Positions 53,190 through 60,295 of a stretch of DNA of 64,000 bases are shown piece after piece. The DNA is taken from positions 57,303 to 121,302 of the IMG/VR virus record IMGVR_UViG_3300041964_000099. One strand, 5' to 3'. Position 1 is the first letter of the stretch; the number at the start of each line of letters is the position of its first letter. A program made the position numbers and the translations under genes. The notes below the pieces were generated by a model. That model was not told the origin of the DNA, searched no databases, and worked only from the letters and a program-made list of their open reading frames with translations. Source of the stretch: a virus.

Positions 53190-55277
53190 ATGACTGCTGC
53201 TGAGCCGATTTCAATGGAGCTTGCCTTAATTCACTCTGATGGGGTGATGGGTAATGCCGTTACAGGCATGAATGATCCTGCCTATGACAAGACCGTTCAT
53301 TCCTATGTCGATACGGCTACACGGCTTCATCAAAATGAGGTTGAAGACCTGTATGAAGGCAATTGGATCTGTGCCAACTGCATCGACGCTTATCCCCTAG
53401 ACGCAACACGAGAATGGGTTGAAATTAAGCTGGGCGGCAAAGCTCGTGACAAACAAGTAATTGATAGCTTCAACACATATCAGACACGGCTGCATATTGC
53501 CAAAACGATCGAGCTAGCAGATAAGTGGAGTCGGCTGTATGGCGGCGCGGCAATTATTGCTGTGATTGAAGATGGGCAACCCTTTGATAAGCCTGTCCGC
53601 CTCGATCGCATCCGCACGATTCGGCGGCTGGTGGTACTCGATCGCTACAAAGTCCGGCCAGTCATTCACGACACTGACCCGATCAATCCCGACTTCTATG
53701 AGCTGGTGCTGCCTCCTCACCTCACCGAGGCGTTCCAGCTCGCAACCAATCAGCCTCGCGTCGCCGCAGCCGGTCTGCGCATCCACAAATCGCGCGTCAC
53801 CCGATTTGATGGCGTCGAGCTGCCACCTGAGATTATGCGCAGGCGCGAAGGCTGGGGTGGCGGCATCCTCAACCGTATCTACGACACTTTCAACCGTTTT
53901 GAAATGACCAACTCATCCGTTGCCAACCTGGTTGAGGAGGTGAGCATCTTCAAATACGCGATGAAGGGTCTGAAGGAGCTATTGGCGAAGAATGATGAAA
54001 AGAGCGTTTCACAGTTGCGCCGTCGCCTCAGCAGCATGTTCTTGCAGAAGGGCAATAAGAAAGCGCTGGTGTTCGATGCCGATGGTGAAAGTGCAGAAAT
54101 AATGGCCCGCAGCTTTACAGGCTTACCAGAGGTGATGGATCGACTGCAAGCGCATATGGTCGGGGCCAGCGATGTGCCTGCAACCATTCTGTTTGGCCGT
54201 GGCCCGATCGGACTTGCCGCCCAAGGAACCGGCGATGCTGAAGATAAGGTTTGGGGTAAAAAGGTCAAGCGGTATCAGGAAAGCAATTATCGCCCCAAGC
54301 TGACGACGGGAATTGACGATACGGCTGGGCTATTTGATTTGATTTGGCTGGCTCAAGATGGCCCGACCAAAGGCAAAACGCCTGATGATTGGTCTTTCAC
54401 CTTTAAGTCACTTGTTCAGCCAACCCTAGAAGAAGATGTGGCGCTACGCGAGCGGCAGGCCAATGTCGATCGCACTTATAAGGATATGGAAGTGCTGACG
54501 AACGAAGAGATTCGGAACTCGCGCTATGGCGGTTCAGATTACACGATTGAAACAACCCTGGATGAGCTGGCCTGGAGGAAGAAACAGCAGGCAGCCGAAG
54601 AAGGGCTAGACCAGTACAGCGATTACGGCTGGGGTGATGAAGAAGGCACACCTGAAGATGCGGGCACAGCTCAGCTTGAAAGCAGTAACCAACCTGCTCT
54701 ACCTGCTGGGCAAACTGCTGCGCCGGTGGGAGCTACCCCAGCCCTTGCAGGCCGTCAGGATGCTGTACGGCAAGACGATGCCACCCCCATCAAATACGTG
54801 CTGAAGTGGCAGGGGCTACAGCTCGGTGTGACGCATGAACCTGGAGATTTGCGCCACGATCGCCCGATGGCGGCAATTTACTGTCACGTTCGGGGCAGCT
54901 ACGGCGCGGCTGAAGATGGCATGGCGATCGATGCCTATCTGGGGCCGAATCCTGAAAGTGTTGCAGCCTTCAAAGTGCGGCAACTCAAATCTGATGGAAC
55001 AGTTGATGAGACCAAATGGATATTTGGCTGTGATTCGATCGTGCAGGCCAGAGATTTGTATCTGCGGCACATGCCCCAAATGCTGTTTGGCGGCATTGAG
55101 GCAGCCAGCCTCACAGATTTAAGTGCCTATCGCAAAGATGCGGAGAGCTGCGGCTGTGAAGCGTGCCAAACCCTTCAACCCCGGCGCAAAAAAAAACGGC
55201 AAAATCCCCAAAAGCTAAACGAATTGGGAGATGGTCAGAGCATATTGAAGAGTCGATCGATCGAGCCGACAGTTTAG
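53190..55277 (+). CDS. Portal protein (DUF1073-like) fused to an inorganic-pyrophosphatase-like domain
   Basis: 695 residues. Residues 1-450 match the DUF1073-type portal pattern: VHSYVDTATRLHQNEVEDLY, NWICANCIDAYPLDATREWV, RLYGGAAIIAVI, KSRVTRFDGVELP, VGASDVPATILFGRGP. A linker rich in Glu/Gly and Gln/Ala follows. The C-terminal part (about 535-660), ATPIKYVLKWQGLQLGVTHE, AEDGMAIDAYLGPNPESVAA, IFGCDSIVQARDLYLRHMPQ, FGGIEAASLTDLSAY, resembles the InPase domain known as a fusion to phage portals. The end runs into a nine-A tract; a shifted frame overlaps it by 115 bp. Rightward, opposite to the head genes. Confidence 0.85.
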   Translation: MTAAEPISMELALIHSDGVMGNAVTGMNDPAYDKTVHSYVDTATRLHQNEVEDLYEGNWICANCIDAYPLDATREWVEIKLGGKARDKQVIDSFNTYQTRLHIAKTIELADKWSRLYGGAAIIAVIEDGQPFDKPVRLDRIRTIRRLVVLDRYKVRPVIHDTDPINPDFYELVLPPHLTEAFQLATNQPRVAAAGLRIHKSRVTRFDGVELPPEIMRRREGWGGGILNRIYDTFNRFEMTNSSVANLVEEVSIFKYAMKGLKELLAKNDEKSVSQLRRRLSSMFLQKGNKKALVFDADGESAEIMARSFTGLPEVMDRLQAHMVGASDVPATILFGRGPIGLAAQGTGDAEDKVWGKKVKRYQESNYRPKLTTGIDDTAGLFDLIWLAQDGPTKGKTPDDWSFTFKSLVQPTLEEDVALRERQANVDRTYKDMEVLTNEEIRNSRYGGSDYTIETTLDELAWRKKQQAAEEGLDQYSDYGWGDEEGTPEDAGTAQLESSNQPALPAGQTAAPVGATPALAGRQDAVRQDDATPIKYVLKWQGLQLGVTHEPGDLRHDRPMAAIYCHVRGSYGAAEDGMAIDAYLGPNPESVAAFKVRQLKSDGTVDETKWIFGCDSIVQARDLYLRHMPQMLFGGIEAASLTDLSAYRKDAESCGCEACQTLQPRRKKKRQNPQKLNELGDGQSILKSRSIEPTV

Positions 55278-57709
55278 GACGGTGGGGCCAATATCGGAAA
55301 GATGCGGGTAAGGAATGCGGGCGATCGCAGGTTGATGACGCCTGGGCGCAGTATCGTGAGGATGCAGCAAAGCGATCGCCCAAGGATCGAGGACTTGTGA
55401 AGCAAGAAATCACCAATAAGCATGGTGAACAGCAAACGGTTTGGAAGAAACCAGTACCGCAGCAGAATCCACACCAACGGCGACAATCGATCGTCTCAGC
55501 AGCAGACTTTAATCGGATTCAACCCGCAAAAATTGAAGGATTAGGAGCGGCTGCAACGTTCAATGAAACGCAAGGTGTCAGTCTGGACGGCAAAAACTAC
55601 GTCCTGAAGACAACGAAACTCAGTTCATTTTCAACCGCAGCTCATGAAATGGTGGTTGCTGACTTAGGCCGATTAGTTGGCGTGCCAGTCAATCGCGTGC
55701 GGTTAGTGCCAACCACTGCGCTCAACCGTCCCGATCGCGCTGCAACTTTGCATGAGGTTGTACCAGGCATCAGCGCCAAACAAGCGCCGATCGCTCAGCA
55801 GGTTGACACCTTTGGACTGGGCCTAAAAGTAGACAAATACACTCCTAAATCATCGGCTTTACAGCGAATTAGTCGGGCCTTGCAACATCCTGACTTAGCT
55901 CGCATCAGCGCTCTAGATTTGTTCGTCGGTCAGACCGATCGCAACCTCGGCAACTTGATTTATGACCCCAAAACCGATCGCTACACCGCGATCGACAACG
56001 AACATGCTTATGATCCTGCCCCCCAACCCATGCCGCTCTATGAAGCGGGCCAGGATGCCCCAAACCAAGTACCCAGTCTCTCGCTGAAGGAAATCTTGGC
56101 AGGCGTGAGCAATCATCCGGTAGGGCTGCCGAGTGAGCGCATGGCGCAAGCCTTCACCGCTGCCGATGACGCTGAACTCGATCGGGCTTTTGCAGGTCAG
56201 GATTTAGAGCCGTTTGTCAGCACATTGGAGAAGCTGCACACCCATTCACCAAGAAGAATTGCTCAGCAGAGACATCGCTATCTGATGGTTGCCAAGGGAC
56301 AAGCTTTTCCCAGCGGAGAAAACACAACGATCGAGCGAACCTGGAATGCCTCGCATCAAGTGCTGAAGCGTCTTCAAGACTATCAGGCCAGACAGCGAGT
56401 AGGTGAGCCACTGCGCACGGATGCCAAGGTAGAGAAAAAGGAACCCGATTTAGCTGACCATATTGCCGATCGCCTGCTGTCAGAAGCGGCTGAGCCGGTG
56501 CGCGGCTGGCTTGACCACATTCGCGGCTGGATGCAGGCCCAAGCAGAAGAAGGGCAGCCCCTAGAAACGGTGCGCGATCGCATGGCTGAGCTGTATGAAC
56601 AGCTTGACCCCGGCCAGTTCTCTCAACTGCTGGGCAATGGCCTCATGCTGAGCCAGCTTGCAGGCCGAGATGAAGTGATGCAGGAAATTGAGGAAGATGA
56701 GCGTCAGGATAGCCTGAGAGCCGACGATCGCCGCATATGGGTTGATGACCCTAGCGTTGAAAACAACGGCTACTACCGTCGCATCAAAGATAGGAAGACA
56801 CCTGCGATCGTTAGCCCATTTGTCAGTCAGAAAGAGTTTAGCCAGTTTCGCCAGGTAAAGGACGTGCGGCATAAAAGCGGCGTCAATACTTCATTTTTTG
56901 TAGAGTCACCCAATGGCGATCGTAAAGTGTTCAAACAGGCATTGCGCAGTGAAGCAATCAGCGTTGCCAGTGAAGTGCTAGCGTCGGAAATTGGCTTACA
57001 GGCTGGAATTAAGGTAAATCGATCGCGCCTGATTCCGGCTGCGGCACGTTCTGAATTTAAGGCCGCAGGTAATGTTGCAACGCTGCATGATCTCGTTCCA
57101 GGTCGGGCTGTGATTGACCTAAAGCGATCGAAGTGGGCAGATACAGATATTCAAATGTCTAGCTGGGCTAGTTACAACTTTGATGCGCTCTTAAACGCAA
57201 CTCAGCATCAAGACTTGGCAAAACTGCTGGCTTTCGATACGTTTGTTGCTAACTCCGATCGCCACTCAGGGAACTTGTTCTACGATCCTCGCAAGGGTTT
57301 CCACGGCATCGACTTGGGCTACAGTTTTGGTGAGCCGGTCGCGATCAAAATGGCTGAAGTTTTGGAAAATACAAGCGATACAACGCTGGAGATGCTGGCT
57401 GAAGATGACCACGCCCGCACTAATCTGACGCACTATGTCACCACGCTTGAAACGTTGCGGCAGCAAAACAGTGCAGACTCATTGAGGTCTCGAAGACTTC
57501 GCTATACAGCGGCAGCGCTGGGCAATCCTCGGTTTGAAACCGAATTTCAGCAGCACGTTCAGATGCAGCAATTACAGCCTGACGAACCATTGAAATATGC
57601 CTCAATGAACGTAGAGCTAGTAAATCATGAGTTTGAAACGCTTCGTCAAAATCAAGCCGCGATTCCCCGCATCATTAATCGCCTCAAACCCTACACTCAA
57701 CAGCCATGA
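55163..57709 (+). CDS. Tandem kinase-like protein with shared tag modules
   Basis: 848 residues from a GTG inside the portal gene; an alternative is entry by -1 slippage on the A9 tract. After a basic N-terminus comes EITNKHGEQQTVWKKP (about residues 80-95), also present in the giant gene. Two kinase-like domains follow. The first has FVGQTDRNLGNLIYDPKTDR (about 252), with IDNEHAY; the second has FVANSDRHSGNLFYDP (about 692), with GIDLGYSF. DRNxxN/DRHxxN with a following Asp is the catalytic pattern of PI3/4-kinase or HipA-like folds. RIWVDDPSVENNGYYRR lies between them. The role is unknown; phosphorylation in the host is a hypothesis. Confidence 0.65.
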   Translation: MPNPSTPAQKKTAKSPKAKRIGRWSEHIEESIDRADSLGRWGQYRKDAGKECGRSQVDDAWAQYREDAAKRSPKDRGLVKQEITNKHGEQQTVWKKPVPQQNPHQRRQSIVSAADFNRIQPAKIEGLGAAATFNETQGVSLDGKNYVLKTTKLSSFSTAAHEMVVADLGRLVGVPVNRVRLVPTTALNRPDRAATLHEVVPGISAKQAPIAQQVDTFGLGLKVDKYTPKSSALQRISRALQHPDLARISALDLFVGQTDRNLGNLIYDPKTDRYTAIDNEHAYDPAPQPMPLYEAGQDAPNQVPSLSLKEILAGVSNHPVGLPSERMAQAFTAADDAELDRAFAGQDLEPFVSTLEKLHTHSPRRIAQQRHRYLMVAKGQAFPSGENTTIERTWNASHQVLKRLQDYQARQRVGEPLRTDAKVEKKEPDLADHIADRLLSEAAEPVRGWLDHIRGWMQAQAEEGQPLETVRDRMAELYEQLDPGQFSQLLGNGLMLSQLAGRDEVMQEIEEDERQDSLRADDRRIWVDDPSVENNGYYRRIKDRKTPAIVSPFVSQKEFSQFRQVKDVRHKSGVNTSFFVESPNGDRKVFKQALRSEAISVASEVLASEIGLQAGIKVNRSRLIPAAARSEFKAAGNVATLHDLVPGRAVIDLKRSKWADTDIQMSSWASYNFDALLNATQHQDLAKLLAFDTFVANSDRHSGNLFYDPRKGFHGIDLGYSFGEPVAIKMAEVLENTSDTTLEMLAEDDHARTNLTHYVTTLETLRQQNSADSLRSRRLRYTAAALGNPRFETEFQQHVQMQQLQPDEPLKYASMNVELVNHEFETLRQNQAAIPRIINRLKPYTQQP

Positions 57710-57987
57710 ACCAATTTCGCCAGTTGCACTCTGATGTCGTAGAGCTGACCTTTTCAGTCAGCGGGAACACCGTTATTGGTGAAATTCCTAAGCACCTCAC
57801 GCGAGCAGTTGAGGACGTGAGACAGCTTCAGCGAATGACGATCGAGCAATACTTGCTGAACTACTGTGGCAGCGCTGGCAATCTGCTTTCACTAGAGCGA
57901 TCGGGCAGCGGTATTGTCCGGGTCGATGGAGAAAGTGACACATTAGATGTCACAAATGTCATTGATGTCACGCGATCGACAGATTAA
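57706..57987 (+). CDS. Small hypothetical protein whose end lies in a repeat array
   Basis: 93 residues, ATGA overlap with the kinase-like gene. NTVIGEIPKHLTRAVEDVRQ and QRMTIEQYLLNYC form a small fold. The last about 18 residues (DTLDVTNVIDVTRSTD) are encoded by TGTCA-rich repeats of the transposon-end-like array, so the original C-terminus was probably replaced. Confidence 0.6.
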   Translation: MNQFRQLHSDVVELTFSVSGNTVIGEIPKHLTRAVEDVRQLQRMTIEQYLLNYCGSAGNLLSLERSGSGIVRVDGESDTLDVTNVIDVTRSTD

Positions 57988-58649
57988 CTGTCCGTAGTGA
58001 CAAATTAACTGTCCTCAACTGTCCGTTTTGACAAATTAACTGTCCTCAACTGTCCGTTTTGACAAATTAAATGTCGCTGATGACAAATTAAGTGTCGCCT
58101 TTCAGTAATTAGTGACAAATTAAATGTCGCTGGTGACAAATTAATGTCATTGAGACAAATTCGTGTCGCCATCGGGCCGCTCACACACATTGTCAGCCCC
58201 GATCGCCTTGTGCAAAATTCTCAAATTAGGCGTCGCCTTCCTGCAAAATTCTCAAATTAATGTCGCAAATTGGAAATTCTCAAATTAATGTCGCTATTCT
58301 CAAATTAGTGTCGCTGGAGGCGATCGGAGTGACGTTCATTCGATCCGGGAAATCTTGCCCCTAGAATCTCTCGATCGCCCATTCTGCAAGGCTTCCAGAA
58401 CCGCGAAATTTTGGTGTGCTCGCATGGCTCAGCCCATCAAAAACGCCAAAATTCCTCAATTAGTCAATCGATCGCACATTCGATGTCGCTTTCCCGACTC
58501 GAACCGCTAAAACATCGCAGTATCAGGAGTTGCACAGCTTTTGGAGTGGTGAAATCTAACCGCTAAATTTGACTTTGCGACATCTAATTTGTCACTGACG
58601 ATCGCCCTTGAGCGACATTAATTTGAGAAAACGACACGAATTTGAGAAT
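57978..58649. mobile_element. Gene-free array resembling Tn7-like/CAST transposon ends
   Basis: About 670 bp between convergent genes with no convincing gene. The left part holds eight sites of the type GACAAATTAAATGTCGC (57978 to 58169, spaced 19-32 bp) and four of the type ATTCTCAAATTAATGTCGC (58217-58314). The right part holds the inverse forms GCGACATCTAATTTGTC (58577) and two inverse ATTCTCAAATT sites (58612, 58632). Inward-facing repeats with asymmetric counts resemble, from memory, the TnsB-site arrays of cyanobacterial CAST elements. No transposase gene is inside, so it would be a non-autonomous or remnant element. Other readings are an origin or regulator array. Confidence 0.6.
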
Positions 58650-60295
58650 CAAGCATTTTCCAGCCAGGTGAAATCTAAATCGGCATTGCCACTAGCGAAC
58701 GCATAGACCAGAGCATCTGCAAAGTCAGGGCTGGAGACGCCGCGCTTATCCATTTCCTTTTTGCCTTCGATCAGAATGAGGCCCGTGTCCGTAAATTTGT
58801 AGAGCGGCTGCGACAATTCGGCAATTAGTTGAGCGTGGTTCGGAATTGAAATCAGTTCGTCAAACGGATGCTCTTTGATGCGATTGACATGCTCATACGT
58901 TTTCTCAAATCGCCGTCGCAATGTCCACCAGATTTCAGCTCGCGGATTCTTGAAAGTGTCTTTGGCTTCGCGATCGAATTCAGGCAGGAATCGATCGCGA
59001 CTCACTGTACCTGAACCGTAGATCGGCTGGAGTTGGAACGGTATGTTCTCAGCACTCTTGAGTGTGCCGCTGACGCCAGAGCCGACACCGTTGGCATCAT
59101 AGTTAAGCCGTTTGGTGCGGCGCAGTGTACACCAGTCGCGAGCGCGATAAGCGGTCTGAGTCGTGTTGCCCAGACTCCAGCTTTCGATATCTTCCATCCG
59201 CACGACAGGGCCACGTCGCATGATAATCACGTTCAGGTCTCCGCCCTCATCAGCGATGTCTAGACCGACGACGCGATCGCCCACCGCTGGCAGCGATAGC
59301 TCAACCGCAGCCATTACCCAAGCAGCCGGAATCGTTACGCCTTCTTGACTTGCAGCGTAATCGATGTCGATCTCTTGAGCTAACACGATCGGATCGAGCG
59401 TGTCCTTCATCTTGGCGTACCAAGCTGGCCCCTTGCGAGGGTCATCGCGCCAATTGAAGGTGAAAATTGAAAACTTTTTGCTGAATCGCTTCTTAGCAAA
59501 AGCATTACCCGTGCCGTTCGGGGTGGAGACGTAGATTTTTACGTCAGAGTTATTGCTAACAGCAGCGTCAACTTTTTGGGCGCGAGCGACGAAGGCAAAC
59601 TCATCCAGAAAATACAAGCGCGATCGCCCACCGCGGCCCATGTTGTCACCACTCTCGCCGGTGATGGTTGAGCCGTTATCTCCATTGTTGAATTTGAGGA
59701 AGCCATCGCTGAAGCGTTTCGGCTTCATCCACAGCGGAAGCTGGGCCAGAATCATCCGCGCTTTTTCAAACAGCGAGTCAGGGTCGCCAATTCGATCGAC
59801 CAGGATTTCTTTGCGCGACCCGAAGGTGATCTTGGCCCCTGGTACAAAGATGAACTGATGCACGGCGAAGCCAACACAGAGCCACGACAGGCCCATGTCA
59901 CGGCTTTTCTCGACTACGCCATCTTCCTTACCTCGGATGCGATCGATCAGCCATTCCAGATACTCTTCCTGGCGGCGAAACAGGTTGAATGGAATATTTG
60001 AGGGGGTGCGGCGCGGATCATATGTCCAGCACCAGTTTGAGATGAAATAGGCCGGAGATTTTCGGCACTTCTCCCACTCCTCGCCGCGATAGGCCATGTC
60101 CGTTCGGGCGCGATCGAACATGGCAACCCGTGTTTGGATTGCGGCTACCAGTTCTGGCTCAGCATTGTCAAGCTGGGGAATCGCGTCGATCGCCTGCTGC
60201 ACTCCAGGCGGATAGTGGCTGATCGTCTTGCGGCCACCGGCCTCAGTTCGCGATCGAGAGAACCCTTTATGAATTGCGCCAAAACTCCAGCCCAT
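58649..60295 (-). CDS. terL: Terminase large subunit
   Basis: 548 residues. Walker A-like VEKSRDMGLSWL and Walker B RLYFLDEFAF with downstream nuclease residues (VVGLDIADEGGD, SSPDFADALVYA) show an intact ATPase-nuclease. It drives DNA packaging into the prohead with the small subunit encoded just upstream (10 bp away). Its C-terminal SIPNHAQLIAELSQPLYKFT to GLILIEGKKEMDK is repeated in a small gene at 61190. The stop lies at the edge of the transposon-like array. Confidence 0.95.
   Translation of the reverse strand: MGWSFGAIHKGFSRSRTEAGGRKTISHYPPGVQQAIDAIPQLDNAEPELVAAIQTRVAMFDRARTDMAYRGEEWEKCRKSPAYFISNWCWTYDPRRTPSNIPFNLFRRQEEYLEWLIDRIRGKEDGVVEKSRDMGLSWLCVGFAVHQFIFVPGAKITFGSRKEILVDRIGDPDSLFEKARMILAQLPLWMKPKRFSDGFLKFNNGDNGSTITGESGDNMGRGGRSRLYFLDEFAFVARAQKVDAAVSNNSDVKIYVSTPNGTGNAFAKKRFSKKFSIFTFNWRDDPRKGPAWYAKMKDTLDPIVLAQEIDIDYAASQEGVTIPAAWVMAAVELSLPAVGDRVVGLDIADEGGDLNVIIMRRGPVVRMEDIESWSLGNTTQTAYRARDWCTLRRTKRLNYDANGVGSGVSGTLKSAENIPFQLQPIYGSGTVSRDRFLPEFDREAKDTFKNPRAEIWWTLRRRFEKTYEHVNRIKEHPFDELISIPNHAQLIAELSQPLYKFTDTGLILIEGKKEMDKRGVSSPDFADALVYAFASGNADLDFTWLENA

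What the first reader, a model, noticed from the sequence alone, without database searches (positions are those of the whole stretch)
57978..58649. Transposase-less array with Tn7/CAST-like end repeats between portal and terminase arms
Twelve inward-facing repeats of two types (GACAAATTAAATGTCGC and ATTCTCAAATTAATGTCGC) at the left and three inverse ones at the right bound about 250 bp without a gene. The spacing near 20 and 31 bp and the sequence resemble, from memory, the TnsB-binding arrays at CAST ends (GACAAATTA...TGTC, GACATCTAATTTGTCAC). Two site types in one element suggest nested or hybrid ends. Its edges coincide with the ends of two convergent genes, and the last codons of the left gene are made of the repeats.
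Basis: partly seen in the sequence, partly recalled or inferred. Interest (0 to 1): 0.8.

Follow-up and report, generated by a model that had tools for sequence, protein, structure and literature searches.

The report
Immobile CRISPR-transposon end array in cyanophage
A temperate cyanobacterial virus carries about sixteen near-perfect docking sites for the transposase of CRISPR-guided (type V-K) transposons, of up to three lineages, but no transposase and no cuttable transposon tips, so the sites could shield the virus from those transposons or could be a young relic of past insertions.

Summary
Window 57934-58649 holds 13 rightward and 3 leftward repeats that face each other across about 258 gene-free bases between a small 93-aa gene and the terminase large subunit gene. 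A site model built only from type V-K CAST ends in cyanobacterial genomes finds 11 strong sites in the 121-kb record, all in this array, with 0 expected.

None of the 16 sites has the TGT terminus at the fixed offset seen in nearly all CAST ends (0/16 against 43/51 raw clusters). No target duplication was found. TnsB, TnsC and Cas12k are absent. Yet the site cores are as intact as in working CASTs (4/96 against 28/420 mismatches). Three site signatures roughly track three Cas12k clades.

Best reading: an immobile composite of V-K CAST end sequences that still displays TnsB sites in a temperate cyanophage. Its likeliest effect is as a TnsB landing pad giving CAST target immunity, but an inert fossil is nearly as likely. 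One unrelated viral contig carries stacked CAST left ends without transposase.

The parts
57706..57987 (+). 93-aa gene of unknown function; its last ~17 codons are array sequence
   Evidence: no Pfam/PHROG/phage match
57937..57951 (+). outermost left TnsB-like site GACACATTAGATGTC; with flank 57934-57956 it mirrors the right site 58574-58596 (91% over 23 nt)
57978..58048 (+). block I: GAC sites 57978, 57999, 58030 followed by TGTCC, the tail seen in the GCC/TGTCC CAST group; contains a ~31-bp tandem unit
58061..58168 (+). block II: GAC..TGTC[G/A] sites 58061, 58082, 58114, 58135, 58154; 58111-58168 aligns with left-end sites 1-3 of ShCAST-like CASTs from the base after TGTAC (up to 86%)
58218..58315 (+). 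block III: TTCTCAAATTA..TGTCGC sites 58220, 58251, 58279, 58299; matches left ends of the TTCnC CAST group; TGGAAA stands where TGTACA/TGTAAA is expected before 58279
58316..58573 (.). gene-free core between the two inward-facing site groups; no Rfam match
58577..58596 (-). right GAC-type site
58611..58649 (-). two right TTCTC-type sites spaced 19-20 bp; the outer one runs up to the terminase stop codon
58649..60295 (-). terminase large subunit, C-terminus intact

Best explanation
[quoted passage not shown] Shown: about 16 TnsB-binding sites, of site signatures matching up to three V-K lineages, with intact cores and end-like spacing. Shown: no cleavable TGT terminus at the canonical offset, no detected target duplication, and no tnsB, tnsC or cas12k in the record. 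Inferred: TnsB made by CASTs of the cyanobacterial host binds these sites but cannot cut and join there. Inferred from known Tn7/Mu/CAST biology: TnsB docked in cis strips TnsC from nearby DNA, so the terminase-portal region would be a protected (target-immune) zone for a few kilobases, and the array would also titrate TnsB. Whether selection keeps it for that reason is not shown; its origin is most simply one or more mini-CAST insertions or stacked ends whose tips were lost.
For: Independent site matrix: 11 of 11 strong hits in 121 kb lie in the array, 0 expected; 16 of 17 hits of at least 12 bits. Best BLAST matches of the array in 386 cyanobacterial genomes are CAST ends, most beginning right after TGTAC and many beside cas12k. 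Site cores: 4/96 mismatches against 28/420 in CAST ends. Termini: 0/16 TGT against 43/51 raw CAST end clusters. No TnsB/TnsC/Cas12k. Site signatures broadly follow Cas12k clades. More sites on one side (13) than in any CAST end examined (at most 6). Temperate phage with integrase and ParA and 120 HIP1 octamers against ~2 expected, so long contact with a cyanobacterial host. An unrelated phage-plasmid-like contig (G294) carries stacked left ends without transposase. Target immunity falls off over ~5 kb and has been engineered to protect a vector region from CAST insertion (pSPIN-R, PMC11702153); V-K CASTs appear to have target immunity (PMC11406308) and TnsB dismantles TnsC filaments (PMC9371665).
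Against: No binding or immunity was tested. The inverted left-right layout is what an ordinary mini-transposon or MITE leaves, and needs no function. Inter-site spacers also resemble real CAST ends (for example ATTGA/ATGGA), so whole end fragments rather than only sites were preserved, which fits a recent relic. Immunity is generally specific to the cognate system, and the host's TnsB is unknown. Only one clear second viral case exists among 2.9 million contigs, and it keeps TGTACA termini. None of 66 V-K CAST spacers taken from the fetched cas12k loci matches the phage, so there is no direct sign that CASTs target it.
Confidence: 0.45

Rival explanations
1. Inert fossil: one or more non-autonomous mini-CASTs (or stacked CAST ends) inserted between the two convergent genes, lost their tips by deletion or mutation, and are now drifting without function.
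For: Inverted 23-nt and 19-nt repeats between left and right groups; TAATT for TGTAC before 58111 and TGGAAA for TGTACA at 58271 look like damaged termini; stacked CAST ends of two groups occur at a chromosomal tRNA locus (L106).
Against: Site cores are as intact as in working CASTs while the termini are lost throughout; uniform decay at ~4% would rarely remove all termini. The array has more sites than any CAST end seen and contains fresh tandem duplications.
Confidence: 0.38
2. A still mobile mini-CAST (MITE-like element) moved in trans by a host CAST, using unusual termini such as TGCNNN.
For: TGCAAAATTCTC (58211, 58242) and TGCTTGATTCTC (58655 leftward) share a TGC at one base outside the canonical offset.
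Against: CAST ends carry TGT at a fixed offset (43/51 clusters); no 5-bp target duplication for any TG..CA pair; single copy in the record and no exact copy of the repeat in viral contigs.
Confidence: 0.07
3. Phage-own iterons (replication, partition or repressor sites) that resemble TnsB sites by chance.
For: Tandem sites in an intergenic region; the phage has a ParA; the G294 array lies beside TrfA-like and ParA genes.
Against: Match to an independent V-K matrix with 0 expected hits and end-like 21/19 spacing; here the array is ~48 kb from parA; absent near portal/terminase of related cyanophages and prophages.
Confidence: 0.05
4. Assembly chimera: a CAST end fragment joined to phage DNA during metagenome assembly.
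For: Single virus contig, repeats at the junction.
Against: Both flanks are phage head genes with matching GC and HIP1 density; the array abuts an intact terminase stop.
Confidence: 0.05

Closest known systems
Type V-K CAST left/right ends (ShCAST, AcCAST and cyanobacterial relatives)
   Same: TnsB-site sequence (GAC/TTCnC-AAATTA-n-TGTC), 19-21 bp spacing, inward orientation, up to 86% identity over sites 1-3
   Different: no TGT terminus, no target duplication, no tnsB/tnsC/cas12k/CRISPR found, more sites, three site signatures together, in a phage instead of beside a tRNA gene
Stacked CAST ends at chromosomal tRNA loci (L106 in G127)
   Same: ends with GAC and TTCnC site types side by side without an intervening complete element in the stretch seen
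   Different: chromosomal copies keep TGTACA termini; the phage array does not
pSPIN-R vector design (engineered target immunity, type I-F CAST; PMC11702153)
   Same: transposon-end sites placed near a locus to keep CAST from inserting there
   Different: engineered, type I-F, with functional ends; the phage function is not shown
Racr RNA anti-CRISPRs (phage-borne mimics of CRISPR repeats, PMC10651486, abstract only)
   Same: idea of a phage carrying a mimic of a host CRISPR-linked cis-element
   Different: those are transcribed RNAs that mimic CRISPR repeats; here DNA sites for a transposase

Membership tests
Type V-K CAST (complete element) | Cas12k effector gene | tested here: not met
   tblastn with two Cas12k proteins against the 121-kb record: none; record may be incomplete
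Type V-K CAST (complete element) | TnsB and TnsC | tested here: not met
   PF09299 absent; tblastn none
Type V-K CAST (complete element) | TniQ | not tested
   no TniQ query was run
Type V-K CAST (complete element) | arrays of V-K TnsB-binding sites | tested here: met
Type V-K CAST (complete element) | CRISPR array/tracrRNA near the left end | tested here: not met
   no genes and no Rfam match in 57600-58900; no CRISPR-like direct repeats among the families
Non-autonomous mini-CAST / MITE | inward-facing site arrays at both sides of a short gene-free core | tested here: met
Non-autonomous mini-CAST / MITE | TGT..ACA termini at the canonical offset | tested here: not met
   0 of 16 sites
Non-autonomous mini-CAST / MITE | 5-bp target-site duplication | tested here: not met
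   no exact 5-mer match for 672 TG/CA pairs
Phage TnsB decoy / target-immunity array (proposed) | intact TnsB sites without cleavable ends | tested here: met
Phage TnsB decoy / target-immunity array (proposed) | binds TnsB and lowers CAST insertion nearby | not testable with these tools
   needs EMSA and insertion assays
Phage iterons | conserved in related phages or next to rep/par genes | tested here: not met
   80 TerL relatives, CL131, PaV-LD, S-CBS4 and prophages lack sites; relatives are distant (at most 53% TerL identity)

The most novel reading that the evidence does not exclude
A cyanophage keeps a multi-lineage array of CAST transposase-binding sites, stripped of the cutting tips, as a DNA decoy that makes its head-gene region target-immune to several type V-K CASTs of its hosts; the unrelated G294 phage-plasmid may do the same with stacked left ends.
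Probability: 0.25. Interest if true: 0.85.

Novelty: new variant of a known kind. Interest (0 to 1): 0.55.

Why it matters
If functional, it would be an anti-CAST device made of DNA alone: a phage using the transposon's own self-avoidance rule against it. Even as a relic it shows V-K CAST end sequences of several lineages gathering in one temperate cyanophage. A review states that how V-K target immunity works has not been examined (PMC11406308); this natural array of sites without termini would be a ready substrate to test whether sites alone suffice.

Tried and rejected
Close viral relatives by terminase or portal peptides: none. Exact repeat pattern in viral contigs: none. Viral hits L109 and L111-L116: chance or unrelated sites without CAST context. 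Plasmid and phage BLAST: no phage match, and one weak plasmid hit each for the window array and the G294 array, not followed further. V-K spacers against the phage: only chance-length matches in the part of the list shown. The idea that the portal block was inverted by the insertion was dropped: related cyanophages also have the portal divergent from neighbouring genes. Cas12k in viral contigs: three records, one beside a prophage integrase and two identical island-like contigs, no CAST insertion into a relative of this phage.

Full report
What is there. Between the stop codons of two convergent genes of a 121,302-bp virus record (window = record positions 57303-121302) lies an array of 16 short repeats: 13 rightward on the left (9 GAC-type, 57937-58167; 4 CTC-type, 58220-58312) and 3 leftward on the right (58577-58596, 58611-58629, 58632-58649), around about 258 bp with no gene. 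The left 93-aa gene ends inside the array. The terminase large subunit ends exactly at it but is not truncated: its relatives stop within a few residues of the same point.

Identity. I collected V-K CAST ends from cyanobacterial genomes holding Cas12k (29 of 244 genomes over the family cut-off; 20 loci read). Their ends are TGTNNN followed by sites of the form GAC/GCC/CGC/CAC/AAC-AAATTA-n(1-3)-TGTC, spaced for example 21, 19, 20, 28 at one end and about 95, 30, 56 at the other. A weight matrix from those sites, with the window left out, finds 11 sites at or above the 10th percentile of real CAST sites in the whole 121 kb, every one in the array; simulated records gave none. BLAST of the array against 386 cyanobacterial genomes gives CAST ends as the strongest hits: 58111-58168 matches left-end sites 1-3 of ShCAST-like elements at up to 86%, and 58248-58314 matches left ends of the TTCnC group. 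Most GAC-group alignments start at the base after TGTAC.

What is missing. In CAST ends the trinucleotide TGT lies at a fixed offset before the first site: 43 of 51 raw clusters, and of the eight failures about six look like chance A+T-rich clusters by eye. In the window 0 of 16 sites has it. No pair of TG/CA edges is flanked by a 5-bp direct repeat. TnsB, TnsC and Cas12k are absent from the record (positive controls rang in 7-20 CAST loci), and no RNA family matches. The array therefore cannot be shown to be an element with ends. Its site cores are nevertheless intact: 4 of 96 core positions deviate against 28 of 420 in CAST ends.

Several lineages. A Cas12k tree of 21 proteins groups elements with GCC..TGTCC sites, TTCnC..TGTCGC sites and GAC/CAC/AAC..TGTC[GA] sites broadly in separate clades, with one exception (L051) and only moderate support for the first (82/80). 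Left blocks I, II and III of the window bear those three tails. That block I belongs to the GCC group rests only on the TGTCC tail and spacer resemblance, and is an inference. Side-by-side ends of two groups occur in a cyanobacterial chromosome beside a tRNA-like flank (L106; the tRNA was recognised by eye, not run through ARAGORN).

The carrier. HIP1 octamers are 60 times over-represented (120 against 1.9), which points to a cyanobacterial host. The record encodes a tyrosine integrase, ParA, a polymerase processivity factor, DNA methyltransferases, endolysin, portal with a pyrophosphatase domain, head protease and tail fibres. The closest isolates by portal are Aphanizomenon phage CL131, Planktothrix phage PaV-LD and Synechococcus phage S-CBS4 at about 29-33%. 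None of the stretches read from these, nor 80 terminase relatives, nor related prophage regions, has the sites. All are distant, so this shows only that the array is not a family-wide feature.

A second case. Among 2.9 million viral contigs one more has such an array: G294 (72 kb), with stacked left-end copies (sites at 54.68-55.05 kb), intact TGTACA in two of them, no TnsB, TnsC or Cas12k, next to TrfA-like and ParA genes. It shares only a ParA resemblance with the present phage.

How it may work. Known: Tn7, Mu and CAST transposases act on the AAA+ target selector nearby and so protect adjacent DNA; in CASTs the effect fades over about 5 kb and has been used to protect a vector region (PMC9371665; PMC11406308; PMC11702153). 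Inferred: the array would recruit TnsB of resident CASTs without offering cuttable tips, giving target immunity around the head genes and some titration. Not shown: binding, protection, or selection. The near equal rival is an inert young relic of mini-CAST insertions. The preserved cores and the loss of all termini favour a kept landing pad; the inverted layout and preserved spacers favour a relic.

Limits. No reads, no host, no close relatives, no biochemistry. The absence of TGT was counted at one canonical offset; a shifted terminus (TGC one base further out) cannot be excluded. Literature searches covered only open-licence full texts; the four searches that touched on decoys, phages or remnants listed no paper reporting phage-borne TnsB arrays, which is weak evidence of novelty.

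Noticed in passing
L110 4395-4873 (G294 54.6-55.1 kb): Unrelated phage-plasmid-like viral contig with three stacked CAST left-end starts (TGCACA/TGTACA) beside TrfA-like and ParA genes and its own tandem repeats, without transposase.
   Followed up: partly
L106 (G127:C1 near 6.26 Mb): Ends of two V-K CAST groups stacked beside a tRNA-like flank, including a pair of inverted single-site ends.
   Followed up: partly
L264 (IMG/VR 2909415753_000001): Intact cas12k with a CAST left end directly next to an integrase-like gene and phage-tail-like genes.
   Followed up: partly
window 53190-55277: Portal protein fused to a C-terminal inorganic-pyrophosphatase domain; the alignment to cyanophages CL131 and PaV-LD covers this part as well.
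   Followed up: no
window 55163-57709: 848-aa protein with HipA-like kinase matches encoded right after the portal gene, no match in 50,697 phage records.
   Followed up: no
whole record G000: HIP1 octamer GCGATCGC occurs 120 times against about 2 expected.
   Followed up: no
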